From Methylomonas sp. UP202 (GTDB taxonomy: Bacteria > Pseudomonadota > Gammaproteobacteria > Methylococcales > Methylomonadaceae): DNA of 64,000 bases. The notes under the pieces were generated by a model that did no database searches, was not told the DNA's origin, and saw only the letters and a list, made by a program, of their open reading frames with translations. Position numbers and translations under genes: made by a program. Positions 1 to 16,008 of this stretch are shown here, one piece after another; positions within the stretch are counted from its first letter, which is position 1; every line of letters starts with the position of its first letter. The stretch covers positions 4,453,547 through 4,517,546 of the forward strand of contig NZ_CP123897.1 in the NCBI RefSeq assembly GCF_029910655.1, written 5' to 3'.

Positions 1-367
1 CAATAATGACTCGCACCACCAGCGGCACGCTTTGCTTACCGTCGAACATGTAATGCCATTTGGCCGCGTTGTTGACCAGTTGATCCATCGCCAGCAGCGC
101 GAAATCGATACGCTGATGCACCAGCACCGGCCGCATGCCTGCCAGAGCCGCGCCGATGCAGATGCCGGTCATGCCGTTTTCGGCCAGCGGCATGTCCAAC
201 ACCCGCTCGGCGCCGTATTTCTCGCGTAAGCCCTGAGTGGTGGCGAAAATGGTTTTCGGATCGGGCACTCCCTCGCCGATCAACAGCATGTCCGGAAACC
301 GCGCCAACCCGTCATCCAAGGCTTCGCGGATCGCCGCGCCGTAACTCAAGGTCAAGATCTCAGACAT
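1..367 (-). CDS. TPP-dependent 2-oxoacid dehydrogenase E1 beta subunit (3' end outside window)
   Basis: The start codon and about the first 122 residues are present; the rest lies beyond the left edge. The N-terminus begins MSEILTLSYGAAIREAL and contains an MPLAENGMTGICIGAALAG-like stretch, matching the pyrimidine-binding half of E1 beta subunits of the pyruvate/acetoin dehydrogenase family. Such subunits pair with E1 alpha to form the thiamine pyrophosphate site that decarboxylates a 2-oxoacid. Its ATG lies inside the end of the E1 alpha gene (8-base overlap), so the two are translationally coupled. No E2 or E3 gene is visible. In this sugar operon the pair may transfer an acyl carbanion to a sugar instead of feeding a lipoyl E2; that is inference. 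Confidence 0.85.
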   Translation of the reverse strand, partial: MSEILTLSYGAAIREALDDGLARFPDMLLIGEGVPDPKTIFATTQGLREKYGAERVLDMPLAENGMTGICIGAALAGMRPVLVHQRIDFALLAMDQLVNNAAKWHYMFDGKQSVPLVVRVII

Positions 368-1328
368 ACACATGCCGCTCCATGCTCGCTAATGCCGGCG
401 CCGGGCCGGCCAAGGCTTCGGAGAAGGCCAAAGCAATCTCGGCGCCGATCTGTTGTTCCAGCGCCAGCAGGATTTCGGCGCCGACGCGGGCATCGGCCAA
501 GGTCCGCCCGGTATGCAACAGCGGACAGCGCTGTTTCCAGGCCAACAGTTCGCCGGGCATGCGGTAGCCCAGCTCGTCGTCCTCGTTGGGACCGCAATGT
601 TCCGGCCAGCGATGGGTATGCAATTCCAGGAACTGCGGGCCCTCGCCGTTGCGGGCGGCGGCGAGGGCGTTTTCCGCCAGCGCATGGACGTGTTCGACTT
701 TATTGCCGTCGCCGCTGACGGCCTGCAAGCCGTGAGCGGCAGCAATTTGATAGATGTCGCGAGCCGGCTGGCGTTCGTATAACGGCGTCATCACCGAGTA
801 TTGGTTGTTCTCGCAAACCATCACCAGCGGCAGTTTTTTCAGTACCGCGAAATTCATGGTCTCGTGCAACACGCCTTCCTCGAAACAGCCGTCGCCGAAA
901 AACACCACCACGACGTTGTTTGAATTCCGGCGCTGTTCGCCCCAGGCGTAGCCGGCAGCGACCGGCACCGTGCCGCCGACGATGGGTGTGGAGGCGATAA
1001 AGCCGGCCGATAAATCACTCAAATGCATCGAACCGCCACGCCCGCCGCAACATCCAGCGGCTAAACCGTACAGTTCTGCGATCAGGCCGACCAGACTGCC
1101 ACCCTTGGCCAGATAGTGACCGTGGCCGCGATGGTTGCTGAATACCTTGTCGCTCTCGGTCAGATGCGCGCAAACGCCGACCGCGATGGCTTCCTCGCCG
1201 ATGCACAAATGGGTCGGGCAACGCATGTGCTGCTCCGCGTAGCGGGCTGCGATGGCCTCTTCGGCACGGCGGATGCGCAGCATCCGGTAATACAAATCTT
1301 GCAGTTCGGCGGTTGTCGGCACGTTCAT
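360..1328 (-). CDS. TPP-dependent 2-oxoacid dehydrogenase E1 alpha subunit
   Basis: A 322-residue protein of the E1 alpha family (pyruvate/acetoin dehydrogenase type). The thiamine pyrophosphate motif is clear: GDG at residues 145-147 followed by NN at 174-175. The HRGHGHYLAKG segment (66-76) and the GGRGGSMH segment (95-102) are family hallmarks. The length is usual for short bacterial E1 alpha subunits. It forms the TPP site together with the downstream beta subunit. The start overlaps the stop of the upstream nucleotidyltransferase-kinase gene by four bases (ATGA). The operon holds sugar-nucleotide type genes and no lipoamide acyltransferase, so a role in central metabolism is doubtful. 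A C-C bond-forming step on a sugar is my favoured guess. Confidence 0.88.
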   Translation of the reverse strand: MNVPTTAELQDLYYRMLRIRRAEEAIAARYAEQHMRCPTHLCIGEEAIAVGVCAHLTESDKVFSNHRGHGHYLAKGGSLVGLIAELYGLAAGCCGGRGGSMHLSDLSAGFIASTPIVGGTVPVAAGYAWGEQRRNSNNVVVVFFGDGCFEEGVLHETMNFAVLKKLPLVMVCENNQYSVMTPLYERQPARDIYQIAAAHGLQAVSGDGNKVEHVHALAENALAAARNGEGPQFLELHTHRWPEHCGPNEDDELGYRMPGELLAWKQRCPLLHTGRTLADARVGAEILLALEQQIGAEIALAFSEALAGPAPALASMERHVYV

Positions 1329-2845
1329 TTGAGCAAGGTGGTGATGTATTTGAACAAAGCCACCGCCCGCACCGGCTCGCGGTTGCAGACGATTTGCACG
1401 TCCAGCGCCGCCGCCGCGCTACCGGCGAACAAGGCCGCGTCCGGCGCCAAGCCGGCGCCCAGACACAAGCCGGCCACCGACAAGAAGGCATCGCCGGCGC
1501 CGATGCGGTCCACCACTTTGGACGACAGGGCCGGAATCTTGTACTGGGTCTTGGCTTGATCCAGCAGCAACGCGCCCTTGGTGCCACGGGTGATCGCGAT
1601 GTGGCTGGCCGCCAGCCTGTCGGCCAACTGTCCGGCCAGTTCCTCGATCGCCCCGCCTCTGTCGTGTACCGCCAAACGCAATTCCGGTTCGTTCATCGAC
1701 AGAAAATTGGCGCGCGGATAGCGGGTGATCAAATGGTAACCGCGATTGCCGCTGTTAACTTGGGCGTTGACGGCCAGGAACTTGGCGCCGGCGCACAAGG
1801 CCGCGACCATGTCGCCGGAAATGAAACCGTTGCCGAAGTCCGGCACGATCACGACGTCGAAATCGCGCAAATGCCGTTCCAGCCAGGCCACGATCTTGCG
1901 GTTGACTTCCACCGGCAACGGGGCGTCGTTGTAAAAATACACCTCGAACAACTTGGCGATGTCGGCATCGACGTAGCGGCGCTTGACGATGGTCGGCCGA
2001 TCCTGGCTAAAGAAAAACACCGGATCGATGTTGGGATTCAAATTAGTGCGGATGAAGTCTTCGTGGCTTTTAGTCGCGCCCAACCCGGACAACAAGGTCA
2101 CGTTGCCGGCAAACTCGGCCACGTGGTTGGCGACCGCGATCGCGCCGCCGGCGAAGCGTTCGTAGTCGTTGTATTTGACCGAAAACACGTTGCCCTTGCC
2201 GGACTGGCCCAAGGCCGAGGTGTAATGGTATTCGTCGACGATGGCCTCGCCGACCACCAGCACGTTCAAGCCCTGCAAGCGCTTAAGCTGGTCTATCATC
2301 GCGTTGGCGGAAATCCGCTCCTTGAATTCGTCCAAGTAAGCGGAAATTTCCGGCGAGAACACCTCGAAATATTCGTTCAGCAAACGGGTGGAACTGGAGG
2401 TCAGTTCGTCGGTGAAAAACACCTTGCCGCCGTGGCGCTCGACCGCGTCCTGCTCGTGCTGAATATTGCCGGTCAAATCGTCGCTGGTGCTCTTGTAGTC
2501 GCTGCCCTTGACGTACAAATCCGGCTTGACCGCATCCAGCACGTTGACGGCGGTCACGGCATGGTTGATCGCCACGCTATCCACGCAAGCCAGCGCGGCA
2601 ATGTTTTCGGCGCGCAAATATTGGTTGAACACCGGCCTACCGGGGCCTTTGTTGACGTATTCGTCGGCGGTGACGCTGACCAGCAGCGCGTCGGCCTCGC
2701 GGGCGGCGGCCTGTAAATGGCGGATATGGCCGATGTGCAGCAAATCGAAGGTGCCGTGGCACAGCGCCACGGTTTTTCCCGCCGCCTTCAATTCGGCGGA
2801 ACGCTGGGCCAGTTGCTCGATCGAGACGATTTTGGATGTCGACAT
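1325..2845 (-). CDS. Fused nucleotidyltransferase-PfkB sugar kinase (HldE-like, reversed domain order)
   Basis: A 506-residue two-domain protein. Residues 1 to about 140 form a cytidylyltransferase-like domain with the HGTFDLLHIGH motif (30-40). Residues about 165-506 form a PfkB/ribokinase domain with a GAGD catalytic motif at 449-452. The heptose enzyme HldE carries the same two activities but with the kinase first and the nucleotidyltransferase last; here the order is inverted. By analogy the protein would phosphorylate a sugar phosphate at C1 and then activate it as a nucleotide sugar. The SIS isomerase immediately upstream supports a heptose-like pathway. The substrate is unknown. The domain calls are firm; the pathway is inferred. 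Confidence 0.85.
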   Translation of the reverse strand: MSTSKIVSIEQLAQRSAELKAAGKTVALCHGTFDLLHIGHIRHLQAAAREADALLVSVTADEYVNKGPGRPVFNQYLRAENIAALACVDSVAINHAVTAVNVLDAVKPDLYVKGSDYKSTSDDLTGNIQHEQDAVERHGGKVFFTDELTSSSTRLLNEYFEVFSPEISAYLDEFKERISANAMIDQLKRLQGLNVLVVGEAIVDEYHYTSALGQSGKGNVFSVKYNDYERFAGGAIAVANHVAEFAGNVTLLSGLGATKSHEDFIRTNLNPNIDPVFFFSQDRPTIVKRRYVDADIAKLFEVYFYNDAPLPVEVNRKIVAWLERHLRDFDVVIVPDFGNGFISGDMVAALCAGAKFLAVNAQVNSGNRGYHLITRYPRANFLSMNEPELRLAVHDRGGAIEELAGQLADRLAASHIAITRGTKGALLLDQAKTQYKIPALSSKVVDRIGAGDAFLSVAGLCLGAGLAPDAALFAGSAAAALDVQIVCNREPVRAVALFKYITTLLK

Positions 2846-2849
2846 AAGC

Positions 2850-3413
2850 CTACTTTTTAATCAATTGATCGGTGATGTGGTGCAGCACGAACAAATGCGC
2901 CAACTCGACCATGCCGTAATGGCTGCTGTCCAGCCAGACATTCCAGCGCCCTAACCGGCGCAGCGGATTGTCGGGCTTGAAACCGCTCAGGGTCAGTACC
3001 GCGAGTCCCTTGGCATTGGCCGCCGCCACCGCGTTGACGATGTTGGCCGACTGCCCGGAGCTGCTGATCGCAATCAGCAAATCGTCGGGATAGGCAAAAG
3101 CCGAGACTTGCTTGGCGAACGCCTGTTCGTAACCGAAATCGTTGGTAAAGCAGGTCAGAGGCGCCGCTTCGTGCAATGTCACTGCGCACAAGCCGCCGAC
3201 GTTGCGCAGATCGGTGATGACATGGCTGGCTATCGCCGCGCTGCCGCCGTTGCCTAAAATGATGACTTTGGCCTGTTGCTGCTTGACCCGCGCGAATTCG
3301 GACAAAACGTCGGCGACAACGCCTTCGCCATCCAATTCGGCGCCGGCCGCATCGCTGAAACGGCAGCCCGCCATCAGTTCGGCAAATTGTCCCGCGGCTT
3401 GTACTAACGGCAT
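2850..3413 (-). CDS. SIS-domain sugar-phosphate isomerase (GmhA-like)
   Basis: A 187-residue protein that is almost entirely one SIS (sugar isomerase) domain. It has the ILGNGGSAAIASH phosphosugar-binding segment and the ISSSGQSANIVNAV segment typical of phosphoheptose isomerase GmhA and DiaA. Length fits GmhA. GmhA converts sedoheptulose 7-phosphate to D-glycero-D-manno-heptose 7-phosphate. Here the gene sits between an epimerase and a kinase-nucleotidyltransferase, which reproduces the heptose-activation order, so isomerisation of a ketose phosphate is likely. The GmhB phosphatase step has no candidate in the visible operon. The substrate could be other than sedoheptulose 7-phosphate. Confidence 0.82.
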   Translation of the reverse strand: MPLVQAAGQFAELMAGCRFSDAAGAELDGEGVVADVLSEFARVKQQQAKVIILGNGGSAAIASHVITDLRNVGGLCAVTLHEAAPLTCFTNDFGYEQAFAKQVSAFAYPDDLLIAISSSGQSANIVNAVAAANAKGLAVLTLSGFKPDNPLRRLGRWNVWLDSSHYGMVELAHLFVLHHITDQLIKK

Positions 3414-3422
3414 CGCGACCTC

Positions 3423-4409
3423 CTATTTATCCAGGTATTTAAACCAGTCCGCGGTGGCGTCGGCGATCGAGGCCGAGGTCCACAGCGGCGCTTCCCGCCA
3501 ATAATCGATGTGCGCCAGCATGTTGGCGACGCCTTGTTCGAAACTGACTTGCGGTTGCCAGCCCAGTTTCTCGCGAATCTTGCGAGTGTCGGCGAAGGTG
3601 CAGTCCGGCTCGCCGGGTCGTTTGGGAATATATTCCACCGGGCCGCCCAACAAGCCGACCAATTGATTCACGCTGTAAGTGCCGCCGCTGCCGACGTTCA
3701 TCACTTCGCCGGCTAAGCCCGACTCGGCGGCGGCGATAAAGGCATTGGCCACGTCGGTGACGTAAGTAAAGTCGCGGGTTTGGGTGCCGTCGCCGACCAC
3801 GGTAAACGGCTTGCCGTTGAGCTTTTGCGCCAAAAACACGCCGAACACCGCGCCGTAAGCCCCGGTGGTGCGGGCGTGCGGGCCGTAGACGTTGAACAAG
3901 CGTAGCGATAGCGCCGGCAGGCCGTACAACTGCGCCCAGTGCAGCACTAATTCTTCCCCCAAATATTTGGTCAGCGCATAGGGATATTGCGGCTTGACCG
4001 GCGCGGTTTCCGGCGTTGGGAACTGTTCGGCCAGGCCGTAGCAGGACGACGAAGCGGCGTAGACAAAACGCGTGACCCCGGCGGCACGGGCCGCTTCCAG
4101 CACGTTGAAAGTGCCGTCGACATTGGTTTCGTAATAGGCGCGCGGCTTTTCGATGGACGGTACGATGTCGGCCAAACCGGCCAGATGAAACACCCAATCG
4201 ACGCCGTCGAATAAAGGTGCGATGGCGGCAAATTCACGAATATCGGCCTGTTGAAACGCGAAGCGATCCCGGCCCAGCAAATCGGCGATGGTTTCCTTGC
4301 GGCCGCCGATCAGGCTATCGATGACTTGGACCGAATGGCCCAGGCGCCACAGTTCGCGGCTGAGATGACTGCCGATAAAGCCGGCGCCGCCGGTAACGAT
4401 GACCTTCAT
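3423..4409 (-). CDS. NAD-dependent sugar epimerase/dehydratase (extended SDR)
   Basis: A 328-residue extended short-chain dehydrogenase. It starts with a Rossmann motif GGAGFIGSH (7-15) and has the catalytic serine region AASSSCYG (118-125) and the YxxxK pair Tyr144/Lys148. The family covers UDP-glucose/GlcNAc 4-epimerases, dTDP-glucose 4,6-dehydratases and heptose epimerases, all acting on nucleotide sugars in the cytosol. An SPSSM-like signature of dehydratases is not seen; the sequence reads more like a 4-epimerase of the WbpP/GalE type. It lies ten bases downstream of the radical SAM gene and ten bases upstream of the SIS gene, in one operon. Confidence 0.85.
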   Translation of the reverse strand: MKVIVTGGAGFIGSHLSRELWRLGHSVQVIDSLIGGRKETIADLLGRDRFAFQQADIREFAAIAPLFDGVDWVFHLAGLADIVPSIEKPRAYYETNVDGTFNVLEAARAAGVTRFVYAASSSCYGLAEQFPTPETAPVKPQYPYALTKYLGEELVLHWAQLYGLPALSLRLFNVYGPHARTTGAYGAVFGVFLAQKLNGKPFTVVGDGTQTRDFTYVTDVANAFIAAAESGLAGEVMNVGSGGTYSVNQLVGLLGGPVEYIPKRPGEPDCTFADTRKIREKLGWQPQVSFEQGVANMLAHIDYWREAPLWTSASIADATADWFKYLDK

Positions 4410-4418
4410 GATTTGTCC

Positions 4419-5519
4419 TTAAATGAAATTGACATGGGCGGGCTGGTTGTCGGCCAGTTTGTCCAAATATTGATTAACCGCTTCCATCCGGCAGTTTTTG
4501 CGGCATTCGTGGATGTCCAGTTCCTTGGCGATGTACTGCCAGTTTTGCCGGCGTTTGTCGCCTTCCCAAATGGCCTGAAAACTGAGTTCGGCAATATTGC
4601 CGTAGGCAAAACGCGAGTCGGTCAAATAGGCGCTGCAGCCGTAAACCTCGCCGTCGGCCATGATGTAGGCCCAAAAATACGGCGTGGCGTGACAGGTTTG
4701 GTAACGTTGCTCGTCCGACTGGCTGTAATTTTTCATGGTTTGTTCGCGAAACACCACGTTGAAGCCGTCGCCGTTAAAGGCCGCCAGTTCTTCGGCCATG
4801 CCCAGCAAATCGTCGTAGCGCAGATTTTCGTAGAGCCGAGTCTCGCTGAACAGGTGTTGGGAATAGGGTTTGACCACCAGATAATCCAGGCCGATGTCCT
4901 TGCAAATCCCGGCCAAAATGGCGATTTCGCCGCGGTTTTCGGGTAACAGCAAAATCTGCGCGCCTAGCGTGCAAGCCAGGCCGTTGGCGCGCTTATGCGC
5001 GACCGCCGCGCGTAGACTATTCAACACTAAATCGAAATCGGCCGCTTTGGTACGGTGTATCGCCGCGTAAGTCTCGGCGCTGCCGGCGTTCAAGGAGACT
5101 TTAATCCACGAGGTCAGCGGCAGCGACTGCTCGATAAACTTGGCGTTCATCAAAGTGCCGTTGGTGGTGAACGACACGTCGATGCCGGCATCCACGGTAG
5201 CTTTGACGATTTCGTTAATGTCCTTATGCAGCATAGGCTCGCCTTCGCCGGCGTACATGATGCTTTTCACGCCCAGCCGGCCCATTTCCGCCAAACGATC
5301 CGCCAGAATGTTGACGTCCAATCGCTTGGCCTGATAGCCGATGTAATCGACCGCGCAAAAAGTGCAGCGATGGTTGCAGGCGCCGACCGGCGAGATTTCC
5401 ATGTAGATCGGGTAGACCGATTTGGCGAGTTCCCAGTCCTGCCTGCCGTCCAGCCATTGAGCGACGCGCTTGGGGTGGTACACCAATTTATGACTGTCGA
5501 TGCCGTATTTGTCCGTCAT
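4419..5519 (-). CDS. Radical SAM protein with SPASM-like C-terminal cysteines
   Basis: A 366-residue radical SAM enzyme. The 4Fe-4S motif CNHRCTFC gives Cys48, Cys52 and Cys55. The C-terminal third has further cysteines in a CSAY segment and a CRKNC segment, as in SPASM or twitch domains that hold extra clusters. Such proteins act on peptides, sugars or cofactors by hydrogen abstraction. It is the first gene of the six-gene minus-strand operon running to the left edge. Its role may be to modify the sugar or a carrier made by its neighbours; nothing in the sequence fixes the substrate. Start is the only ATG in a good position, with a poor ribosome binding site. Confidence 0.85.
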   Translation of the reverse strand: MTDKYGIDSHKLVYHPKRVAQWLDGRQDWELAKSVYPIYMEISPVGACNHRCTFCAVDYIGYQAKRLDVNILADRLAEMGRLGVKSIMYAGEGEPMLHKDINEIVKATVDAGIDVSFTTNGTLMNAKFIEQSLPLTSWIKVSLNAGSAETYAAIHRTKAADFDLVLNSLRAAVAHKRANGLACTLGAQILLLPENRGEIAILAGICKDIGLDYLVVKPYSQHLFSETRLYENLRYDDLLGMAEELAAFNGDGFNVVFREQTMKNYSQSDEQRYQTCHATPYFWAYIMADGEVYGCSAYLTDSRFAYGNIAELSFQAIWEGDKRRQNWQYIAKELDIHECRKNCRMEAVNQYLDKLADNQPAHVNFI

Positions 5520-5722
5520 ATTTTTGTCGCTTGCCGGTGAAAAACGCTATTGTCCCAGTAAAAGCGATAATTGTGCCAACGGGATACCTATTAAGTGTAG
5601 CGTCCGGCCGGACGAATGCGGAAATGTCCGCGCGCACCATCAACATCCAATGCAGGCTTACCGGAACCGCTTGCCGCAGCGCGCACCTAGCCAATCAGCC
5701 GAGTTTCTATCAAAAATTTTGA

Positions 5723-5752
5723 TTGACATCACAAAATTTCGCTCGATAGAAT
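5723..5752 (+). promoter_or_regulatory. Sigma70 promoter for the PEP-CTERM gene
   Basis: TTGACA at 5723-5728 and TAGAAT at 5747-5752 are separated by 18 bases: a full -35 box and a -10 with one mismatch. It faces the nidogen-domain gene and would give a leader of about 110 bases. The divergent region 5520-5870 holds nothing else I recognise except the AAGGAGAG ribosome site just before 5871. Confidence 0.65.
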
Positions 5753-5870
5753 GGAACCGTCGCAATAATTGTCACACGATTGTCATAAATATAAGGCGAA
5801 AAGCTGGAAAACAATGGGGGCAAACACTTGCGCGACACCAGTCCATCACAATTGCAGCAAGGAGAGTGGA

Positions 5871-7067
5871 ATGAAAGCACTGATAGTCGGCGGAATTCTG
5901 TCCCTGACGTTAGCGGTACCCGGTTCGGCGAACGCCGTTTCGTTGTTGACGCTGGCGGACGGCACATTCGGCGAGATAGCCCTGACCCCTAACGATGACG
6001 AATCGAGTTCGATGTTGAATCTGCCGTTTGCCGTTAATTTTTACGGAAACGTGTTCAACAACTTTTACGTGAACAACAACGGCAATATCACGTTTCAGTC
6101 GCCGCTATCCGAATTCACGCCCAGCAGTTTCCCGATCTCCGAACAACCGATGATCGCGCCCTATTGGGCCGATGTCGATACGCGTTGCGACGGTTGCGGC
6201 AACGTTTACGTCGGCGCGCCGAACAGCAATACGACCATCGTCACCTGGAACAACGTCGGTTACTACAGCGAACACGCCGACAAAACCAATAACTTCCAAC
6301 TGGTGTTGCGCAACCAGCAAAACGGCGACTTCGACGTCGAATTTCGCTACGACCGGCTGGAATGGACCACCGGCGACGCCAGCAACGGCAGCAACGGCTT
6401 AGGCGGCACCCCCGCGCAAGCCGGTTTCGACGCCGGCGACAACGTCAATTACTTCACGCTGCCGGGTTCGTTCACCAGCGATATTCTCGATATTGCCAAT
6501 AACACCAATGTCGTCAACGGCGACCCCGGCTTCTGGTCGTTCAGCATCCGCAACGGTTTGACGCCCGGCGCAACGCCGTCCAACCCGTTGTTGCCGGTTG
6601 TCGTAGACGGCGCTTTTGTCTTCGATTTCAATGTTCAGCCTGAACAACCCATCTTTATCGACCCTGAGGTAGCGGTCGGTTACGACTACGAAGTCACATC
6701 CGGTCCCAACATTGCTTCCGTTCTGTTGCCCACCAATCTCGGGGACGGAATTTACGATCTGTACCTTTGGGAGAATACGGAGTACGTGTTCGCGGCGGCA
6801 TTGACCGCAGGCATTGAGTACTTCTTCGAACCCGGCGGCGTCAGCCGCTTCCGAATTCTGGGCATCGAAGTCAGCGCGGGCCTGGATCCCAACAATCCGC
6901 AAGCCTTCGTAACCGGTCTGACCTTCGTCGGTGCCGGCGCGGTCAGCCTGACTCAAACACCGCTGGTCAGCCAAGTGCCGTTGCCCGCTTCCGGACTGCT
7001 GATGTTCTCCGGATTGCTGGCTGTCGGTTCCATGAAACGCTCGCGATCCGCACGTTCGGCCGGCTAA
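5871..7067 (+). CDS. Exported PEP-CTERM protein with nidogen-like domain
   Basis: A 398-residue exported protein. The start at 5871 is chosen over an in-frame upstream ATG at 5769 because it follows AAGGAGAG and begins a clean signal peptide (MKALIVGGILSLTLAVPGSANA). Residues about 30-190 resemble the nidogen (NIDO) extracellular domain: an FYGNVFNNFYVNNNGNITF strand and an APYWADVDTR segment. The C-terminus has VPLPASG, a hydrophobic helix and a basic tail (KRSRSARSAG), the tripartite PEP-CTERM sorting signal in a VPLP variant. Such proteins are processed by an exosortase and go to the surface or the exopolysaccharide matrix. No exosortase gene is in the window. Adhesion or matrix structure is a likely role. 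Confidence 0.85.
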   Translation: MKALIVGGILSLTLAVPGSANAVSLLTLADGTFGEIALTPNDDESSSMLNLPFAVNFYGNVFNNFYVNNNGNITFQSPLSEFTPSSFPISEQPMIAPYWADVDTRCDGCGNVYVGAPNSNTTIVTWNNVGYYSEHADKTNNFQLVLRNQQNGDFDVEFRYDRLEWTTGDASNGSNGLGGTPAQAGFDAGDNVNYFTLPGSFTSDILDIANNTNVVNGDPGFWSFSIRNGLTPGATPSNPLLPVVVDGAFVFDFNVQPEQPIFIDPEVAVGYDYEVTSGPNIASVLLPTNLGDGIYDLYLWENTEYVFAAALTAGIEYFFEPGGVSRFRILGIEVSAGLDPNNPQAFVTGLTFVGAGAVSLTQTPLVSQVPLPASGLLMFSGLLAVGSMKRSRSARSAG

Positions 7068-7415
7068 CGGGTCAGTCGCTACTCCAAAGAGGGGCGGCCG
7101 TCGCAAGGGACCGCCCCCACCCTAATGACGGAGTGAAGACTCCTCCCATCCCACTCGAGTTCGAAACGGCGCGTTGACCGCGCCAATGATTTTCGCCCAC
7201 CTTTACCAAGCTTTACACCCAGCTACGGCTCGACCGTCTTGCCAAGCGTCCGCGCAACACCTAAACTGAACACCGGCTCACTAGCGAGCCGCGATCCCGC
7301 CGCCGAATTGTTCAGGCTCGGGAAGATTTACCCACCTACCGCTGTCGAAGCCATCGCCACTACTGCCGGTCGGAATGTTTACTAGTACCAACCGTAATCA
7401 ACCGATACCGTTGCC
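7068..7415 (+). other. Intergenic stretch with one GC hairpin
   Basis: Between the PEP-CTERM gene and macA. A hairpin with arms GGGGCGG (7091-7097) and CCGCCCC (7111-7117) may end the upstream transcript, but no T run follows. I see no gene, and no convincing -35/-10 pair for macA. Confidence 0.4.
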
Positions 7416-8633
7416 ATGCCGCCAAACCCGGAGAATAACCGTAGCCGTCAACGTCGGCCCGCGATCATTTTGCTGTTGCTGTTGACTACCGCGATCGCGG
7501 CTTATCGCTGGCTGACGCCCACTAATAAGTCCACGGATGCCGACCGCCCCGCGTTAGCGACCGTCACGCTCGGGGACATTGAGGAAACCGTCACCGCTCA
7601 AGGCAAGCTCGAACCCAAGGAATACGTGGATGTCGGCGCCCAAGTCACCGGTCAGTTACAAAAAATCCAAGTCAAAATCGGTGACGATGTCGAGGCCGGC
7701 CAACTACTGGCGCAGATCGATCCGCGAATTTATGCGGCTCGGGTCGCCGCCGACGAAGCCAATATCAAGAACCTGCAAGCGCAATTGCGCGGTCAACAAG
7801 CGCAAGCACTGTTCGCCCGTCAGCAATACGAACGCAACCGGGAATTGCTGGTCAGCCACGGCGTCAGCGTCCAGGATTTTCAAAACAGCGAATTCACGTT
7901 GAAAAACGCCGACGCCACCGTCGCGGCGCTGGAAGCGCAAATCGAGCAATTGCAATCGACGCTGAACGGCGATAAAACCAATTTGGGCTACACCAAAATC
8001 TACGCGTCGATGGCCGGCACGATGGTCGATCAAAAGGCCCGCGAGGGCCAAACGTTAAACGCCAATCAAACCACGCCGATGATCCTGCAGTTGGCGAAAC
8101 TGGACACGATGACGGTACGCGCCCAAGTCGCCGAAGCCGATGTGATGCGGCTCCGCCCGGCCATGGCGGTATATTTCACGACGATGGGCTCGGGCGAGCG
8201 GCGTTGGCAAGCCACGGTCAGGCAAATACTGCCGACGCCGGAAGTCATCAACAACGTCGTACTGTATAACGTGTTGGTCGACGTCGACAACCGCGACCGG
8301 CAATTGATGACCGGCATGAGCGCCCAGATGTTTTTCGTGCTGGGCAAGGCCGAGCAAGTCCCGCTAATACCGATCAACGCGCTCGGCGCCCGCGACCGCC
8401 GCAACGACAGCGACTTGGGAGACGCCTATCGCGTCAAGGTCGCCGGCCCGGACGGCGGCGAGAAAGTCGTCCAAATCGGCTTGCGCAATCGCCGTTTCGC
8501 CGAAGTTCGGGCCGGACTGGCGGTCGGCGACCGGGTCGAACCGCCCGCCGGCGGCGAAGACAAGATCAAAAACCGCCGTAAGGACCCCGGACCGCTCGGT
8601 CCGAACGCGGCGCCCGGAGTACCGCGCCTATGA
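7416..8633 (+). CDS. macA: MacA-like periplasmic adaptor of a tripartite efflux pump
   Basis: A 405-residue HlyD/RND-type membrane fusion protein. An N-terminal membrane anchor (residues about 15-33) is followed by a biotinyl-lipoyl half-motif (GDIEETVTAQGKLEPKEYVDVGAQ), a long coiled-coil hairpin (about 110-185), the second lipoyl half and beta-barrel domains. In MacAB-TolC this protein bridges the inner-membrane ATPase MacB and the outer-membrane channel for export of macrolides, peptides or lipids. Stop and start overlap with macB in ATGA. The C-terminus (GEDKIKNRRKDPGPLGP and beyond) is longer and more charged than usual. Substrate unknown. Confidence 0.88.
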   Translation: MPPNPENNRSRQRRPAIILLLLLTTAIAAYRWLTPTNKSTDADRPALATVTLGDIEETVTAQGKLEPKEYVDVGAQVTGQLQKIQVKIGDDVEAGQLLAQIDPRIYAARVAADEANIKNLQAQLRGQQAQALFARQQYERNRELLVSHGVSVQDFQNSEFTLKNADATVAALEAQIEQLQSTLNGDKTNLGYTKIYASMAGTMVDQKAREGQTLNANQTTPMILQLAKLDTMTVRAQVAEADVMRLRPAMAVYFTTMGSGERRWQATVRQILPTPEVINNVVLYNVLVDVDNRDRQLMTGMSAQMFFVLGKAEQVPLIPINALGARDRRNDSDLGDAYRVKVAGPDGGEKVVQIGLRNRRFAEVRAGLAVGDRVEPPAGGEDKIKNRRKDPGPLGPNAAPGVPRL

Positions 8634-10567
8634 ACCCGACGCCGTTGCTGCAACTGACCGACATTCAGCGCGTCTATCCGAACGGCGACGCCACGGTTCG
8701 AGCGCTGGACGGCGTCTCGCTGACGATTTGGCCCGGCGAATTCGTCGCGATCGTCGGCCAATCCGGGTCGGGCAAGTCGACGCTGATGAATTTGATCGGC
8801 TGCCTGGACCGTGCCGACGCCGGCGCTTACCGGGTGCTCGGTCGCGACGTGGCCGACCTGGACCCCGACCAACTGGCCGCGCTACGGCGGGATAGCTTCG
8901 GTTTCGTATTCCAACGCTACAATTTGCTGAATACCGCCACCGCCACCGAAAACGTCGAGATACCTGCCCTCTACGCCGGTCTACCGAAGCTCGAGCGCCG
9001 ACGACGCACCTTGCAGCTGTTAAGCAAACTGGGTCTGGCCGAGCGTGGCGAGCACCGACCGATGCAACTTTCCGGCGGCCAGCAGCAACGGGTCGCAATC
9101 GCCCGTGCCTTGATAAACGACCCGCCGGTGATTCTGGCCGACGAACCGACCGGCGCGCTGGACAGTCACAGCGGCATGGAGGTGATGAGTCTGCTCGGCA
9201 ATCTGCACACCGAAGGCCGCACGGTATTGTTGATCACGCACGACGAAAAAATCGCGGCCCATGCGCAACGCGTGATTCATATCGCCGACGGCAAGATCGT
9301 CGGCGACGGGGAAGCTCATATTCGCGGTTCGGCCGTGCCGCCGCCGGCGCACCCCGGCATCGGCGGCGCCGGGCTGGCGGCGGAACTGGGCGAAGCAGCC
9401 AAGACCGCGCTACGCTCGCTACGCGTCAACCTGTTTCGCACCGCGCTAACCTTGCTGGGCATCGTCATCGGCGTCGCCGCCGTCGTGACCATGCTGGCGG
9501 TCGGCCAAGGCAGCCAGGAAAAAGTGCTGGAGCAAATGCGGGCGATGGGCACCGACATCCTATCGATCCGCCCCGGCCTGCCGGGCTTTCGCGGTGGCGG
9601 CGACGTGGCCACCTTGACACTCGCCGATACCGACGCGATCGCGGAACTGGCCAACGTCGCATCGGCCGCGCCGGAACGCAACGGCCGGATGACCGTGCGT
9701 TACGGTAGCGTCGATTACGCGACCAGCGTGCAAGGCGTCGCGTCCAGCATGCCGTGGGTACGCGACTGGCCGGTCGCGCTTGGCGATTTTTTCGACGAGC
9801 GCGACCAGCGGCGCTACGCACCGGTGGTGGTATTGGGCGAAACGGTACGCAAACTGTTGTTCGCCGAAGGCGAAGACCCGCTGGGCCGTTTCGTGATGAT
9901 AGGCAATATTCCGTTCGAAGTGATCGGGGTAATGGCAACCAAGGGTGCCGACGCCCAAGGCAGCGACCGCGACGACGCGGTGTTCGTACCGATTACGACC
10001 GGCCTGACCCGTTTGTTCGGCCAGAAGTATCTGGGGGGCGTCACGGTGCGGGTCGAGGACGTCGTTAAGATCGACGCCACCCAACAAGCGATCACCGATT
10101 TGCTGATCGCCCGTCACCAGACCGAGGATTTCCGGATACGCAACATGGCCTCGATTATCGAATCGGCCACCGAAACCCAGAATACCTTTACCTTGATGCT
10201 AGGCATTGTCGCCGCTATTTCCTTGCTGGTCGGCGGCATAGGCGTCATGAACATCATGTTGGTCAGCGTCACCGAACGCACCCGCGAAATTGGTATCCGT
10301 ATTGCCACCGGCGCCCGGCGCCGCGATATTTTGTTGCAATTCAACACCGAAGCCGCGGTGGTCTGTACCTTGGGCGGATTAATGGGCGTGTTGCTGGGAT
10401 TTGCCGCCGGTTACGTTTTGAAGTACTTCGAGATGGCGGTGCTGTTTTCGCCGCTACCGGCGATCCTCGCTTTTTCCTGCGCCTTCGGTACCGGCGTGTT
10501 ATTCGGCTACCTACCGGCCCGCAAGGCCGCCTTTCTGGATCCGGTCGTGGCCTTGGCGGCGGAATGA
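8630..10567 (+). CDS. macB: MacB-like ABC transporter (ATPase-permease fusion)
   Basis: A 645-residue MacB-family mechanotransmission ABC protein, the usual length. The N-terminal ATPase has a Walker [10 protein letters not shown] (43-51), the signature LSGGQQQR and the Walker B region [12 protein letters not shown] transmembrane helix follows near residue 275 ([20 protein letters not shown]), then a periplasmic domain and three C-terminal helices with the family motif [21 protein letters not shown] split among them. It uses ATP in the cytosol to drive movement of substrate captured in the periplasm through MacA and the outer-membrane partner encoded next. It overlaps both neighbours by four bases, so the three proteins are made together. 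Confidence 0.93.
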
Positions 10568-11958
10568 CCAAGAAAGCCCGACATCCAGCGTTCCTACTTG
10601 CGTTACTAAGCCTGAACGCCGGCTGCAACCTGTTGTCCGACTACCGACGTCCCAGCGCCGAAACGCCGACGCATTGGCGGGAAGCGCGCGCGGTCGATCC
10701 GGCCGATATCGATGAGCAATGGTGGCGAGCTTTCTCCAGCGAGCAACTCAACCATTTGATCGGCGAAGCCTTGGCCGCCAACAAGGATCTGGCCGCGGCC
10801 GTTCAACGGATAGCGCAAGCGCGCGCTCAAGCCAGAATCGCCGGTGCCGACCTCTGGCCCAGTGCGACGTTGGACGGCAACTTCAGTGACAGCCGCAACG
10901 AACTGAGCGACAGCCAGAAAACCAGCGGCCAAATCGACATCGCTTACGAGGTGGATTTGTGGGGCGCCAATCGGGCCAAGCGCGACGCCGGCGGCGCTCG
11001 CGTGCTGAGCCAGCTGTTCGCCCGCGACGCGCTACGGCTGGTCGTAATGGCCGACATCGGCCAGACCTATTTCAACCTGCTGGCCCTCCAAGAACGCCGG
11101 CAAATCGCGGCCGATTTCCTGGAAACGGTCGGCGCGATCTTGACTATCGTCGAAGCTCGCCAACGAGCCGGCGCCGCCTACGAACTGGAAGTGGCCCAGC
11201 AACGCACGGCCCATGCCAATGCCCGCGCCAGCCTAGACCAGCTGATCCAGCAACAAGCGCTCGCGGAAAACAGTTTGGCGATTTTACTCGGCCACCCGCC
11301 GCAACATTTACACTTGGCGCCGGCGCGATTCGCCGATCTGGCGACACCGAGCATTCCCGCCTCGCAGCCCGCCGACCTATTACAGCGAAGACCGGACATC
11401 GGTCAATTGGAAATGGAGCTGGTGGCCGCCAATGCCGATATCGCCGTGGCGCGCGCCGCGTTTTATCCGAAGTTGCAGTTAAGCCTAAGCAGCGTGCTTG
11501 CCAACCCGCAACCCGCCGGCGTGGCGGCGAGTCTGGCGGCCGGACTTTCCCAGCCGCTGTTCCAAGGCGGGCGCTTGGAAGCCGCTCTGGACTACGCATT
11601 AGCCGCGAATGCCGAGTTGATCGAAAACTACCGACAAACCGTGTTGACCGCCTTCAAGGAAGTCGAGGACGCCGCCGCGACCTTCGCCAACAGTCGCCGC
11701 CGTCTGCAAGCCCTACAAAGCGCTGCGGAGAAGGCCAAGTTGGCTTACCGGATTTCCGAGGACCGTTACCGTTTGGGCGCGGTGGATTTCCAAGCATTGT
11801 TGAATGCGCAGAGCAGTTACCTGGGCACCGAAAACAACCGCGTCCAAGCAAGATTGGATGTGTTGACCGCTCAAATACAAATGTATAAAGCTTTAGGGGG
11901 TGGTTGGTCGCTGGCCGAGCAAAACACCGATCCGACGGCGCAAGTCTTGTCGCCCTAG
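10564..11958 (+). CDS. Outer-membrane factor lipoprotein (NodT/OprM type) of the MacAB pump
   Basis: A 464-residue TolC-superfamily outer-membrane efflux protein. The signal sequence ends in a lipobox (LNAGC, Cys21), so it is a lipoprotein as in the NodT/OprM branch. Two outer-membrane-efflux repeats follow, with the LLQRRPDIGQLEMELVAANA segment typical of the family. It completes the tripartite pump with the two genes upstream and shares an ATGA overlap with macB. The transcript ends before a convergent TolC-like gene at 12097; the 138-base gap has no clear terminator with a T run. Confidence 0.9.
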   Translation: MTKKARHPAFLLALLSLNAGCNLLSDYRRPSAETPTHWREARAVDPADIDEQWWRAFSSEQLNHLIGEALAANKDLAAAVQRIAQARAQARIAGADLWPSATLDGNFSDSRNELSDSQKTSGQIDIAYEVDLWGANRAKRDAGGARVLSQLFARDALRLVVMADIGQTYFNLLALQERRQIAADFLETVGAILTIVEARQRAGAAYELEVAQQRTAHANARASLDQLIQQQALAENSLAILLGHPPQHLHLAPARFADLATPSIPASQPADLLQRRPDIGQLEMELVAANADIAVARAAFYPKLQLSLSSVLANPQPAGVAASLAAGLSQPLFQGGRLEAALDYALAANAELIENYRQTVLTAFKEVEDAAATFANSRRRLQALQSAAEKAKLAYRISEDRYRLGAVDFQALLNAQSSYLGTENNRVQARLDVLTAQIQMYKALGGGWSLAEQNTDPTAQVLSP

Positions 11959-12096
11959 CTAACAAGAAAACGCAATCACGCAAGTCGGGGCGCGCGGCGC
12001 CGCTGCTGCTTTTCTCAGCCTGTCGGCCCACTAATCAGGGCAACTTCGGCGGTTCTCCTACCCGTACCGACCGCAATTCCTCCGGTATTGTCGTTG

Positions 12097-13602
12097 TCAA
12101 CGAATGTTAGCGAGCACGTCGATGCCGTGCAGATGTTTCAACTCGGCTTCCGCCACCAGATAATCGAACAATTTATCCAAGCGCTGGGTTTGGGTCGCAT
12201 CCAGATTGCTTTCCAGATTCCGGTATTCCATCGGGTTCATCGTGCCAAGCTCCACACTTTTCCGGCCGGCTTCCAGTCGGCGTTCCTGAACCTTGCGCAA
12301 TTTGTCCAGCAGTTCGATCTGCTCGGTCAATTTGGTTAATTTATTTTGAAATTGCCTGGATTGGCTGCGGGTATCGTCGATCGCGCCGCGCAATTGCTCG
12401 TCCAACATGGTCTTGTCGTGAGAGGCCACCTTAACGGCGGCATCGCGAGCCTCGAAATTGGGCAACTCGACTTGCACTTCCACGCCCACGGTCACCAAGT
12501 CGTTGATTTCCCTGGATTGCGAAGTACCGACCGACTTGATGTAGGGACTGTAACCGGCCCAGGTCGAGACGGTGGGTTTCCAGACATCTTCGTGCTTGTC
12601 GATTTCGACCGCTTGTTGAACTATCTGGATATTGACTTCCTGGGTTTGGAACTGCAAGGCCCGATCGATATCGTAGGCGTGAACATCGCTCTTGCCCGGC
12701 TCCAGCGGATAGTCGTCCAATTCCACGCCGGTGGCATTCTTGATATCCAGCCAGCCCAGCAACTCGTTCATTTTGGTATCCATCGCCTCGCGGGTGTCGC
12801 CGGCGGTCAATTGCTGATTCAGCAAATTGCCTTCCTCGATCACGACACCGACTTCGGAAGCGCGCCCCAATTCGAAATTGCGTTGTTGGGTTTTGCTCTG
12901 GTCGCTGATCGCCTCGAGTTTGCGAGTCTCGATATCCAGCTTATGTTTCTGCACCAGCGCCGCCAGATAGGCCTTATAAACCGAGAACATCACATCCTGT
13001 TCGGTACGGTTCAAACGCGCCTCGGCTAACTGTATACCCAAGCGGCTCTTGGCTGCCTCGTACTTGAATTCGGATTTGTACCACCAGGGCGCGGTCCAGC
13101 GCAGACTCATATAGGTGCGTTCCGAATTGGAACGGATCGAGGTGGGATTGGCCGGGTCGACGTTGACCACATTTTCGATCTGGCTGGTATCGCCGAACTG
13201 ATAACTTTCATTGACGGTGAATTCGACCTCGGACGCGTATTTGGCGTCCTCGGCGTCGTAGTTCAAACGCGCCGACCGCACGTCGCGACGCGCTTTAACG
13301 ACCGAAGGGTTGTGGCACAACGCCATTTTGATCGCGCCCGGCAAGCTCAAGCGACCGACCGACTGGCGCGGTATACCTTCGCAAAATGCGGGCGCGGCGA
13401 CTTCGCCGCTGTCGGCTTCCGCATCGTCGCCATAAGGCCAAGCCTGAGCCGAGGGCATGCCGGCGCAGGTCATCGCCGCACCGATCAGCCAAGCCCGAAT
13501 CCAGTCGCGGCTTCTGGCTCCGGTTTTGTCTAGACGTCTATCACCGATCTCCGCCCCGTTCGAAGCTTCGACACTCATCTTCGCCGATTTTCTATTCATC
13601 AT
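12097..13602 (-). CDS. TolC-family outer-membrane protein of a glycoconjugate cluster
   Basis: A 501-residue outer-membrane efflux protein with an N-terminal export signal (WLIGAAMTCAGMPSAQA, about residues 37-54) preceded by an unusually long charged stretch. Two coiled-coil repeats (about 90-270 and 320-490) are typical of TolC-like trimeric channels. Unlike the outer-membrane factor at 10564 it has no lipobox. It is the last gene of the minus-strand cluster starting near 19845, and its start overlaps the stop of the HlyD gene by four bases. It probably forms the outer-membrane exit for the product made by the cluster. Confidence 0.82.
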   Translation of the reverse strand: MMNRKSAKMSVEASNGAEIGDRRLDKTGARSRDWIRAWLIGAAMTCAGMPSAQAWPYGDDAEADSGEVAAPAFCEGIPRQSVGRLSLPGAIKMALCHNPSVVKARRDVRSARLNYDAEDAKYASEVEFTVNESYQFGDTSQIENVVNVDPANPTSIRSNSERTYMSLRWTAPWWYKSEFKYEAAKSRLGIQLAEARLNRTEQDVMFSVYKAYLAALVQKHKLDIETRKLEAISDQSKTQQRNFELGRASEVGVVIEEGNLLNQQLTAGDTREAMDTKMNELLGWLDIKNATGVELDDYPLEPGKSDVHAYDIDRALQFQTQEVNIQIVQQAVEIDKHEDVWKPTVSTWAGYSPYIKSVGTSQSREINDLVTVGVEVQVELPNFEARDAAVKVASHDKTMLDEQLRGAIDDTRSQSRQFQNKLTKLTEQIELLDKLRKVQERRLEAGRKSVELGTMNPMEYRNLESNLDATQTQRLDKLFDYLVAEAELKHLHGIDVLANIR

Positions 13603-14840: not shown

Positions 14841-16005
14841 ATACGTTAGACAAGGCGTCTATGATACGCCGCCAATCGAAATATGTCCTCGCGTGGGCCG
14901 CTCCGGCATTGACCAAACGCTCGGCCAATTCGGGGTTTTCGAGTACTTTCAATACCGCATCCGTCAGCGCCTTGGCGTCGCGTTGCGGCACCAGCAAGCC
15001 GGTTTCGCCATCGCGAATCACGTCGGAGATGCCGCCGACATCGCAAGCCACCACCGGCGTCAAGTAAGCCAAGGCCTCGACCAACACAATGCCGAGACCC
15101 TCGGTGTCGCCCCGGCTATCGACAATGGACGGCAACACGAACACGTCGGCCTCGCGATACAATTGTTCCAATTGCTCGTTGGTCACGACGCCGTGGAAGC
15201 TGACGCTGGCTTCGATACCAAGCGTTTGGGCCAAGGCCTTCCACTCGGCCGCCTTGTCGCCGTCGCCGACGATATGCAAGCGCGCTTGGGTGTGCTTGAC
15301 GATGTCCGGCCACGCATTCAGCAAATAGCCGACACCTTTGCGCTCGATTAGACGGCCGACATACAACACGTCCTTGACCGGCTTGGCGCGGTTTTTCTCG
15401 ACGGGTTTGATCTCGACCGTGGCGCCGAACGGAATCACGTGTATCGATTCCACCGGAACCCCGGTCAGTGCCGCGAGCTGTCCGGCGGTATAGTTGGAAT
15501 TGCAGATCAAGGCCTGGGCGTGCCTGACCGCATGGCGAATGAAATAGGCGACGAACGGAAACTTCTTGGATAGCAGCAGTTCGGCGCCGTGAAACGTCAG
15601 CACGACGGGCGTGCGATGCGCCATCGCCGCGAAATAGCCCCAGATCCCATGCGGGAACGGCCAATGGACGTGAATAACATCGTAATTGCCGCGCCGGCAA
15701 AATCCGATCGCCTGGACCAGACCGGACAGAATATAAAACCCGGCCACGAACAAATACAGCGGATTGCGAATCCGGTTGGGCGCGCCCTGAAAATGGGTCA
15801 AATTTTCGAAGCGCTTGAAAAAATAACGGAAGCGGTAAACCGGCACGCCTTGCACGCTATGGTTTTCCCGGCCTTCGTAGCTGGGCGCGAACACCTCGAC
15901 CCGGTAACCGCGCTCGGTCATGTATCGGTTGCACTCGACCAAAAACGAACCGTTACGGTCGTCTTCGCCGAGCGCATACACCGAAGTCATCATGCACACT
16001 TTCAT
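14812..16005 (-). CDS. GT4-family glycosyltransferase
   Basis: A 397-residue group 1 glycosyltransferase with the GT-B fold. The N-terminal half has the acceptor-side motif VLTFHGAELLLSKK; the C-terminal half has VLYVGRLIERKGVGYLLNAWP and the EGLGIVLVEALAYLTPVVACDVGG nucleotide-sugar site with its E-x7-E pattern. It is cytosolic and transfers a sugar from a nucleotide donor to a lipid-linked or growing glycan. It sits between the GT2 enzyme and the export adaptor, so it probably extends the same product. Donor sugar unknown; the neighbouring genes suggest an acylamino sugar. Confidence 0.88.
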   Translation of the reverse strand: MKVCMMTSVYALGEDDRNGSFLVECNRYMTERGYRVEVFAPSYEGRENHSVQGVPVYRFRYFFKRFENLTHFQGAPNRIRNPLYLFVAGFYILSGLVQAIGFCRRGNYDVIHVHWPFPHGIWGYFAAMAHRTPVVLTFHGAELLLSKKFPFVAYFIRHAVRHAQALICNSNYTAGQLAALTGVPVESIHVIPFGATVEIKPVEKNRAKPVKDVLYVGRLIERKGVGYLLNAWPDIVKHTQARLHIVGDGDKAAEWKALAQTLGIEASVSFHGVVTNEQLEQLYREADVFVLPSIVDSRGDTEGLGIVLVEALAYLTPVVACDVGGISDVIRDGETGLLVPQRDAKALTDAVLKVLENPELAERLVNAGAAHARTYFDWRRIIDALSNVYGSVTREKS

Positions 16006-16008
16006 GGT

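What the first reader, a model, noticed from the sequence alone, without database searches (positions are those of the whole stretch)
1..5519. Six-gene sugar operon that mixes a heptose-type pathway with an orphan TPP E1 pair and a radical SAM enzyme
Seen: radical SAM/SPASM, epimerase, GmhA-like SIS isomerase, kinase-nucleotidyltransferase fusion and E1 alpha/beta, all within ten bases or overlapping. Known: GmhA and HldE activities activate heptoses; E1 enzymes normally pass an acyl group to a lipoyl E2. Inferred: without E2/E3, the E1 pair could add a two-carbon acyl unit to a sugar, giving a branched or higher-carbon nucleotide sugar, with the radical SAM enzyme making a further change. This is the best candidate here for an undescribed biosynthetic system.
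Basis: partly seen in the sequence, partly recalled or inferred. Interest (0 to 1): 0.72.

Follow-up and report, generated by a model that had tools for sequence, protein, structure and literature searches.

The report
Heptose-type operon with E2-less E1 carboligase
A methane-eating bacterium carries a tightly packed set of genes that probably builds an unusual branched sugar for its surface coat, using a relative of a central-metabolism enzyme that appears to have been repurposed to stitch two carbons onto a sugar; related gene sets occur in many kinds of bacteria and in some phages.

Summary
Six genes (radical SAM, epimerase, GmhA-like SIS, nucleotidyltransferase-kinase fusion, E1 alpha, E1 beta) lie 9, 9 and 4 bases apart or overlap by 4 and 14. 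To the left come the rest of E1 beta, a second radical SAM, glycosyltransferases, a sulfotransferase and legionaminate-type genes, and no E2. The two E2 genes found in the genome sit beside AceE-like and SucA-like E1s. In 82 loci around the fusion gene, 37 carry E1, 19 a transketolase-type enzyme, 3 an acetolactate-synthase-like enzyme, 23 none; no E2 was found. These are the three ThDP classes that a 2025 review lists as branching keto-sugars (PMC12247030). The E1 pair groups apart from E2-linked E1s, with conserved Arg/Trp residues and a C-terminal extension. The radical SAM's best-ranked solved relative is DesII, which makes a keto-deoxysugar. Best reading: the operon makes a C2-branched, heptose-based nucleotide sugar for a surface glycan. 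E1-type carboligases in antibiotic sugar pathways are in print; the heptose-type chassis, DesII-like partner and breadth were not found in my searches. No biochemistry was tested.

The parts
4419..5519 (-). rSAM1: radical SAM/SPASM enzyme, 366 aa, CX3CX2C, C-terminus HVNFI; DesII/BlsE-like
3423..4409 (-). NAD-dependent sugar epimerase/dehydratase, 328 aa (GalE/LegB-like, below both NCBIfam cut-offs)
   Evidence: Pfam PF01370 3.7e-63; GalE 181 bits of 262 needed, LegB 168 of 475; many columns 61 of 61
2850..3413 (-). GmhA-like SIS isomerase, 187 aa; D68 aligns with the second glutamate of the AEEL stretch of phosphoheptose isomerase 2i22
   Evidence: gmhA model 93 bits of 209 needed; PDB phosphoheptose isomerases; D68 in 56 of 56 rows, H178 in 55 of 56
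1325..2845 (-). Nucleotidyltransferase (N-terminal) - PfkB kinase (C-terminal) fusion, 506 aa; order reversed from HldE
   Evidence: Pfam PF01467 at 29-143 and PF00294 at 194-484; rfaE domain II model matches 17-154 and domain I model 187-484; HxGH in 82 of 82 rows, GAGD in 81 of 82
360..1328 (-). E1 alpha, 322 aa, E2-less subfamily (loop RWPEHCGPNEDDELGYR)
   Evidence: Pfam PF00676 1.1e-52; group with two other E2-less E1s 100/98; subfamily residues
1..373 (-). E1 beta, N-terminal part; continues left of the window (complete 358 aa at L002:16844-17920)
   Evidence: Pfam PF02779 and PF02780; H86, R88, W128, R179 in 28 of 28 module rows; residues 331-358 lie beyond the end of 1w85_B

Best explanation
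The operon makes a C2-branched, higher-carbon nucleotide sugar for a surface glycan. Proposed order: (1) the SIS protein turns a ketose phosphate (sedoheptulose 7-phosphate by analogy) into an aldose phosphate; (2) the kinase half of the fusion puts a phosphate on C1 and the nucleotidyltransferase half makes the NDP-sugar; (3) the epimerase and the DesII-like radical SAM enzyme rearrange the ring and leave a ketone, probably beside a deoxy position; (4) the E1 alpha/beta pair, working without lipoyl E2, decarboxylates pyruvate (or a similar 2-oxo acid) on thiamine diphosphate and adds the two-carbon unit to that ketone, giving a tertiary alcohol and a branched (about nine-carbon) sugar; (5) the downstream glycosyltransferases and sulfotransferase build and decorate the glycan. 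Shown here: gene content, lack of E2, recurrence, the distinct E1 subfamily and the DesII-like relation. Inferred: every substrate, the nucleotide base, the order of steps 3 and 4, and the final product. My separate odds: E1 is an E2-independent carboligase 0.8; its acceptor is a sugar of this chassis 0.6; the radical SAM makes the ketone 0.35.
For: Contiguity and overlap, conserved in 5 of 5 Methylococcaceae loci. No E2: own genome, 0 of 82 and 0 of 25 loci. TPP enzyme in 59 of 82 fusion loci, and in 29 of 37 with at least 8 kb on both sides, against 1 of 11 LegB control loci, that one lying on what looks like the contig of module locus L046 (29/37 v 1/11 p 6e-5, v 0/10 p 8e-6). The three TPP kinds seen (E1 37, transketolase-type 19, acetolactate-synthase-like 3) are the three that PMC12247030 lists as branching keto-sugars. 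E1 alpha tree: 28 module rows with two other E2-less E1s at 100/98, all 8 E2- or lipoyl-linked rows outside. E1 beta residues H86, R88, W128, R179, chosen for setting 28 module rows apart from 7 E2-linked rows (R88 and W128 among them), also hold in both E2-less relatives and are absent from the other 9 rows; in a second sample of 26 E1 beta proteins R88, W128 and R179 are in 26 of 26, H86 in 23 of 26 and the GPF-type C-terminal extension in 25 of 26. Radical SAM family ranked nearest to DesII, with BlsE next by profile; both act on nucleoside-linked sugars. From the E1 side, 14 of 25 loci show a heptose-type kinase: fusion gene 11 (one weak), HddA-like 3; S. magneticus pairs the same E1 class with HddA-like, HddC-like and SIS genes.
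Against: No activity, substrate or glycan is known. 23 of 82 fusion loci show no TPP enzyme in the stretch held, 8 of them with full flanks, so the chassis may work without one. The TPP place is not strictly either/or: 0 of 82 loci hold both E1 and transketolase, but 5 of 25 E1-anchored loci do (L196, L197, L202, L209, L211). 8 of 37 E1 loci have no close radical SAM in view. DesII is tied within about one Z unit with the peptide enzymes SuiB and SkfB, and its profile match covers only residues 30-208. In the E1 beta tree two module rows (L065, L074) fall with S. magneticus on the side of the E2-linked group (95/81), so the module E1 beta is not one group, and these two lack the C-terminal extension; an Agrobacterium E1 pair without annotated E2 groups with E2-linked ones and lacks the signature. 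SIS, fusion and epimerase score below the NCBIfam cut-offs for GmhA, HldE and GalE, so heptose is an analogy. One E2-less relative sits beside NRPS-type genes, not sugar genes (S. griseofuscus).
Confidence: 0.55

Rival explanations
1. The TPP pair acts first, as a private transketolase-like enzyme: it transfers a two-carbon ketol or acyl unit onto an aldose phosphate to make the ketose phosphate that the SIS protein then isomerises. The product is a linear higher sugar, not a branched one.
For: Split transketolase genes, or parts of them, take the TPP place in 18 of 82 loci and a fused one in L064; canonical heptose synthesis draws on sedoheptulose 7-phosphate made by transketolase (established knowledge); the extra Arg/His of E1 beta could bind a sugar phosphate.
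Against: Acetolactate-synthase-like enzymes, a class that uses pyruvate as donor, also occur (3 of 82). Pyruvate as donor would give a 1-deoxyketose that a GmhA-type isomerase could not turn into an aldose (chemistry, not tested). 23 of 82 loci show no TPP enzyme. In A. oryzae the E1 genes lie between an SDR and two aminotransferases (L021), which suits a late step.
Confidence: 0.17
2. The E1 pair is an E2-independent carboligase or decarboxylase for a different building block of the same glycan (for example a legionaminate-type sugar or an acyl substituent), and the SIS/fusion/epimerase genes make a separate, unbranched heptose-like sugar.
For: The locus also holds LegB, DegT, epimerase_2 and CMP-transferase genes; 11 of 25 E1-anchored loci show neither the fusion gene nor HddA in the stretch held, several of them on short contigs.
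Against: E1 alpha follows the fusion gene directly or overlaps it in 17 of 37 E1 loci, and the pair recurs with two different heptose-type activation routes.
Confidence: 0.15
3. An ordinary 2-oxo acid dehydrogenase E1 that borrows the E2 of the AceF-like or SucB-like complexes elsewhere in the genome.
Against: The two E2s have their own long E1 proteins next door; the subfamily carries a C-terminal extension starting where 1w85_B, solved with the E2 binding domain, ends; it is present in 25 of 28 module rows and 25 of 26 rows of a second sample; no E2 near E1 in the loci examined.
Confidence: 0.05

Closest known systems
alpha-KADH2 (E1-type) sugar-branching carboligases: AviB1/AviB2, Pau11/Pau12, KbDH
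   Same: Two-gene E1 alpha/beta in a sugar pathway, proposed or (KbDH, in vitro, with ketone analogues) shown to add a C2 unit from pyruvate to a ketone (PMC12247030, PMC4425429, PMC4753412)
   Different: Those serve sugars of actinobacterial antibiotics; here the pair sits with SIS, a nucleotidyltransferase-kinase fusion and a radical SAM enzyme in a surface-glycan locus. Sequence placement with them was not possible
YerE-like enzymes (yersiniose, erwiniose)
   Same: ThDP enzyme adding a C2 (or longer) unit to a nucleotide-bound keto-deoxysugar of Gram-negative LPS (PMC12247030); acetolactate-synthase-like relatives occur in 3 of 82 related loci
   Different: Decarboxylase-type single protein, not an E1 pair; acts on CDP-3,6-dideoxy-4-keto-glucose
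GmhA / HldE heptose pathway
   Same: SIS isomerase, PfkB kinase and nucleotidyltransferase with HxGH and GAGD motifs kept
   Different: All below NCBIfam cut-offs; fusion order reversed; Asp aligned with a Glu of GmhA; the epimerase scores 107 bits of 275 needed for the heptose epimerase model
DesII (TDP-4-amino-4,6-dideoxyglucose ammonia-lyase)
   Same: First-ranked solved relative of rSAM1 by profile and by fold
   Different: 16% identity over the fold alignment; 32 bits of 450 needed for the DesII family model; rSAM1 has a SPASM domain by Pfam
NCBI 'sporadic carbohydrate cluster' proteins (TIGR04323, TIGR04324)
   Same: Both models are passed in related locus L035, which has the same radical SAM, epimerase, SIS and fusion genes with a split transketolase
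   Different: Named, but my one search for the names found 0 papers; none of the ten proteins of the window operon and its left neighbours run against NCBIfam lists them (best 25 shown)

Membership tests
alpha-KADH2 sugar-branching carboligase | E1 alpha and beta as a two-gene pair | tested here: met
alpha-KADH2 sugar-branching carboligase | No E2 partner nearby or free in the genome | tested here: met
alpha-KADH2 sugar-branching carboligase | Encoded within a sugar/glycan gene cluster | tested here: met
alpha-KADH2 sugar-branching carboligase | Sequence group with AviB1, Pau11 or KbDH | not tested
Grouping shown only with two other E2-less E1s
alpha-KADH2 sugar-branching carboligase | Carboligation of pyruvate with a ketone | not testable with these tools
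   needs enzyme assay
Pyruvate/acetoin dehydrogenase E1 (E2-linked) | Groups with E2-linked E1s and ends at the canonical E1 beta C-terminus | tested here: not met
   Window rows lie outside the 8 E2/lipoyl-linked rows in both trees; 28 residues after the end of 1w85_B. That this end contacts the E2 domain is recalled
GmhA (TIGR00441) | Score above curated cut-off | tested here: not met
   93.3 bits, cut-off 209.45
HldE (NF008454) | Score above cut-off and kinase-then-nucleotidyltransferase order | tested here: not met
   170.8 bits of 521; order reversed
DesII (TIGR04426) | Score above curated cut-off | tested here: not met
   32.2 bits of 450; fold and profile similarity only
LegB (TIGR04180) | Score above cut-off, for the operon's epimerase | tested here: not met
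   168 bits of 475; the separate gene at L002:1952-2932 does pass, 524.8 bits

The most novel reading that the evidence does not exclude
A phylum-crossing chassis for branched, heptose-based (about C9) surface sugars: an isomerase/kinase/nucleotidyltransferase core activates the sugar, a DesII-like radical SAM enzyme with an invariant H-x-N-F-I tail creates the ketone, and one (sometimes two) of three kinds of ThDP carboligase (E1 pair, split transketolase, acetolactate-synthase-like) adds the side chain, so that swapping the ThDP enzyme diversifies the surface; phages carry a compact version.
Probability: 0.33. Interest if true: 0.82.

Novelty: new variant of a known kind. Interest (0 to 1): 0.62.

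Why it matters
C2-branched sugars are described in the papers I saw from a set of antibiotics and from LPS sugars such as yersiniose (PMC12247030, PMC4753412). If the reading is right, a much larger reservoir of branched, higher-carbon surface sugars exists in environmental bacteria and phages, and an E2-independent E1 subfamily gets a recognisable signature (E1 beta R88, W128, R179, usually H86; GPF-type C-terminus) that can be searched for and tested. It would also offer a radical SAM route to a keto-sugar acceptor outside antibiotic pathways.

Tried and rejected
Considered and rejected: E1 as part of a nearby dehydrogenase complex (no E2). Strict mutual exclusion of E1 and transketolase: it looked so in 82 loci (0 with both; in the 37 full-flank loci, 19 E1 and 9 TK without overlap, hypergeometric p 4e-4) but failed in the E1-anchored sample (5 of 25 hold both). 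A first regular expression for the E1 beta signature in that sample matched only 13 of 26 rows; aligned column by column the cause is mainly W106, which varies, while R88, W128 and R179 hold in 26 of 26. A literature description of the whole cluster: searches gave antibiotic precedents and, in the listings, no paper that I recognised as being on this chassis; Krug et al. 2024 (doi 10.1002/anie.202403535), PMC544256 and two others are not held, so a mention there cannot be excluded.

Led nowhere: placing AviB1/KbDH in the tree; finding the nucleotide used by the fusion from sequence; Pfam names for the HAD/APH-like pair c5 of L035 (0 families; the names are my reading); reading the Streptomyces loci L133 and L137 (L133 turned out to have an E2 match). 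In the fold list of rSAM1 two sugar-acting radical SAM enzymes recalled by me (AprD4, NeoN) are not among the 50 rows shown; that is not evidence against them.

The E1 trees use 28 module rows each (27 loci and the window) although 37 loci carry E1; fused, long or low-scoring E1 genes were dropped. The 54 radical SAM rows were chosen for scoring over 535 bits, and some loci give two. Alignment A2 holds the window protein and 35 of 46 candidates, A3 the window's E1 beta and 17 of 21. ORFs at contig edges were read without a start codon.
Full report
What is there. The window is G000:C1:4453547-4517546 of a 5.68 Mb genome in two contigs; relatives with the same genes are Methylomonas and Methylobacter by record title. 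The six genes are on the minus strand and packed with gaps of 9, 9 and 4 bases and overlaps of 4 and 14. Pfam and NCBIfam give radical SAM/SPASM, NAD epimerase, SIS (best model gmhA, 93 bits of 209 needed), CTP_transf_like plus PfkB (best model HldE, 171 of 521, domains in swapped order), E1_dh, and Transket_pyr plus Transketolase_C. None reaches a named-enzyme cut-off of NCBIfam.

Left of the window. E1 beta is complete at 358 aa. Then come a second radical SAM of the same family (463 aa), GT1_2 proteins of 606 and 1060 aa and a third radical SAM, two smaller GT1_2-like proteins (one below its cut-off), a sulfotransferase, a CTP_transf_3 protein, an epimerase, a DegT aminotransferase and an epimerase_2 protein; two further proteins (275 and 542 aa) match no Pfam family. 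The epimerase passes the LegB cut-off. No E2 is among them. A NeuB gene, two flagellins, FliD and an MptE-like/TPR protein lie further right in the window at 42-53 kb, so legionaminate-type genes lie at both ends, and flagellin is one possible target of the glycan. Flagellin-like genes also lie in 4 of 82 related loci (cluster c20: L050, L052, L057, L059; the name is my reading of the sequence).

No E2 to serve. The whole-genome search gives two strong PF00676 matches, the operon's own E1 alpha and a frame of 956 aa about 2 kb from an E2, plus four weak ones (23-26 bits) in frames of 629-706 aa that I take for DXS and transketolase genes. The only other E2 found lies beside a 969-aa protein that I read as AceE.

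How widespread. Titles include Gammaproteobacteria and other Pseudomonadota, Nitrospira, Nitrospina, Omnitrophota, Elusimicrobia, Chlamydiae, Myxococcota, Acidobacteria, Verrucomicrobia and others; many are metagenome bins and their names may be wrong. Within the order, 16 of 301 genomes have the fusion, own genome included. SIS is found in 63 of 82 loci, the epimerase family in 63 and a radical SAM protein scoring over 400 bits in 46; many stretches are cut by contig ends.

The TPP place. By my HMMs, 37 loci carry E1, 19 transketolase-type (18 with split genes or parts of them, one fused in L064), 3 an acetolactate-synthase-like protein and 23 none; in the 37 loci with at least 8 kb on both sides the numbers are 19, 9, 1 and 8. 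As a background, 11 LegB loci from the same phylum gave one TPP enzyme, and that locus lies on a contig of the same length as module locus L046 and carries an E1 beta and a radical SAM of the module. Fisher p is 6e-5 counting it, 8e-6 without it; relatedness of the loci makes these optimistic. A HAD-like/APH-like pair or fusion (c5) is in 10 loci, all of them among the 19 transketolase-type loci and none among the 37 E1 loci. L035 carries NCBI's 'sporadic carbohydrate cluster' proteins above cut-off.

Why branching. A 2025 review of ThDP enzymes that form tertiary alcohols (PMC12247030; abstract, introduction, the sections on alpha-KADH2 and transketolases, and passages of the rest seen) names three classes that branch keto-sugars: YerE-like decarboxylases in LPS, E1-type pairs in secondary metabolites (KbDH tested in vitro with pyruvate and ketone analogues), and split-gene transketolases (13 sequences, all Streptomycetes, none characterised). 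The same three kinds occur in the loci here. Passages of PMC4425429, PMC4753412 and PMC8234114 describe AviB1/AviB2 and, in the first two, Pau11/Pau12. PMC4753412 notes that C-4 branched octoses also occur in Gram-negative LPS, there through YerE.

The E1 subfamily. In IQ-TREE trees of 39 E1 alpha and 39 E1 beta proteins (annotations), the 28 module E1 alpha rows form a 100/98 group with two E2-less relatives (S. griseofuscus beside NRPS-type genes, S. magneticus in a glycan locus), apart from all 8 E2- or lipoyl-linked rows. In that tree S. griseofuscus falls among the module rows and S. magneticus just outside them. In the E1 beta tree the 8 linked rows form a 100/100 group with an Agrobacterium row without annotated E2; 21 module rows, the window's among them, form a 100/99 group, while 5 others go with S. 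griseofuscus and 2 (L065, L074) go with S. magneticus nearer the linked group. So the subfamily is clear for E1 alpha and for the window's E1 beta, but the module E1 beta rows are not a single group. H86, R88, W128 and R179 of E1 beta are in 28 of 28 module rows and in both those relatives, and in 0 of the other 9 rows; the positions were picked for separating module from 7 linked rows, so only the two relatives, the lipoyl row and the Agrobacterium row are a fresh test. In 26 E1 beta proteins of a second sample, R88, W128 and R179 are in 26 of 26 and H86 in 23 of 26 (that sample was itself fetched with a model of the module rows). E1 alpha has P38, R186 and G246 in 28 of 28 and in both relatives, and D250 in 28 of 28 and one of the two. 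E65 and H134 of E1 beta are kept in every row. The AlphaFold2 model of E1 beta (mean pLDDT 83.8) aligns over 7-330 with residues 1-324 of 1w85_B, the E1 solved with the E2 binding domain, so its last 28 residues are extra; 25 of 28 module rows end in F-x-G-P/H-F/Y, one of the other three being cut by its contig end, and 25 of 26 rows of the second sample end in a similar GPF-type tail. That the extension blocks E2 docking is inference.

From the E1 side. A search with 18 aligned E1 beta sequences in 398 genomes of the phylum gave 28 matches in 23 genomes. In 25 fetched loci no E2 was found, the fusion gene is present in 11 (one weak, 276 bits) and an HddA-like kinase in 3; several stretches are short. 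In S. magneticus the same E1 class sits with HddA-like (133 bits of 600), HddC-like (131 of 300; a mannose-1-phosphate guanylyltransferase model scores higher, 160 of 440) and SIS genes. So the class is linked to two different kinds of heptose-type activation. Five of the 25 also hold a split transketolase, which weakens the idea of a strict exchange.

Phages. Relatives of the fusion gene, some partial, occur in 18 viral contigs. In L106-L108 it is followed by SIS, a compact TPP-like pair and a radical SAM protein. In L106 the set lies between genes matching a portal protein and a major head protein, and both TPP-like halves match PHROG 34187 of unknown function. That phages carry rfaE, glycosyltransferase and radical SAM genes is in print for pelagimyophages (PMC7029224, passages).

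Verdict.

Noticed in passing
L106 (viral contig, 1-17356); similar L107, L108: Phage contig with fusion gene, SIS, compact TPP-like pair (PHROG 34187) and radical SAM between a portal and a major head protein match: a virus-borne sugar module. Phage rfaE and radical SAM genes are in print (PMC7029224).
   Followed up: partly
window 42463-52933: MptE-like/TPR protein, two flagellins, FliD, CBS-nucleotidyltransferase and NeuB: probably a flagellin glycosylation region whose partner legionaminate-type genes lie left of the window.
   Followed up: partly
window 33370-37005: 1211-aa pyruvate:ferredoxin/flavodoxin oxidoreductase-type protein, another TPP enzyme in the same window.
   Followed up: no
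L214 (G437:C66): Two E1 alpha/beta pairs in tandem beside HddA-like and HddC-like genes.
   Followed up: no
L029, L034, L036: Module loci in which the fusion gene is followed by a HAD-like protein and an enolase-superfamily sugar-acid dehydratase-like protein, with (L029) or without (L034, L036) an acetolactate-synthase-like enzyme (family names for L034 and L036 and the HAD name are my reading, L029's other two proteins were run against models).
   Followed up: partly
L071, L077, L087, L094: Very short transketolase C-part (about 160-185 aa), seemingly lacking the third domain, paired with a normal-length N-part.
   Followed up: no
G000:C1:1657848 and 1670755: Two frames of 629 and 637 aa about 13 kb apart with the same weak PF00676 match; probably two DXS-like genes (identity not checked).
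   Followed up: no
L131:8923-10969: Streptomyces griseofuscus plasmid E1 pair of the same subfamily beside a condensation-domain protein and an ACP, no sugar genes annotated nearby: this E1 class may serve non-sugar acceptors too.
   Followed up: partly
window 5769-7067: Divergent gene with a NIDO domain upstream of the operon; its C-terminus resembles a PEP-CTERM anchor (my reading).
   Followed up: no
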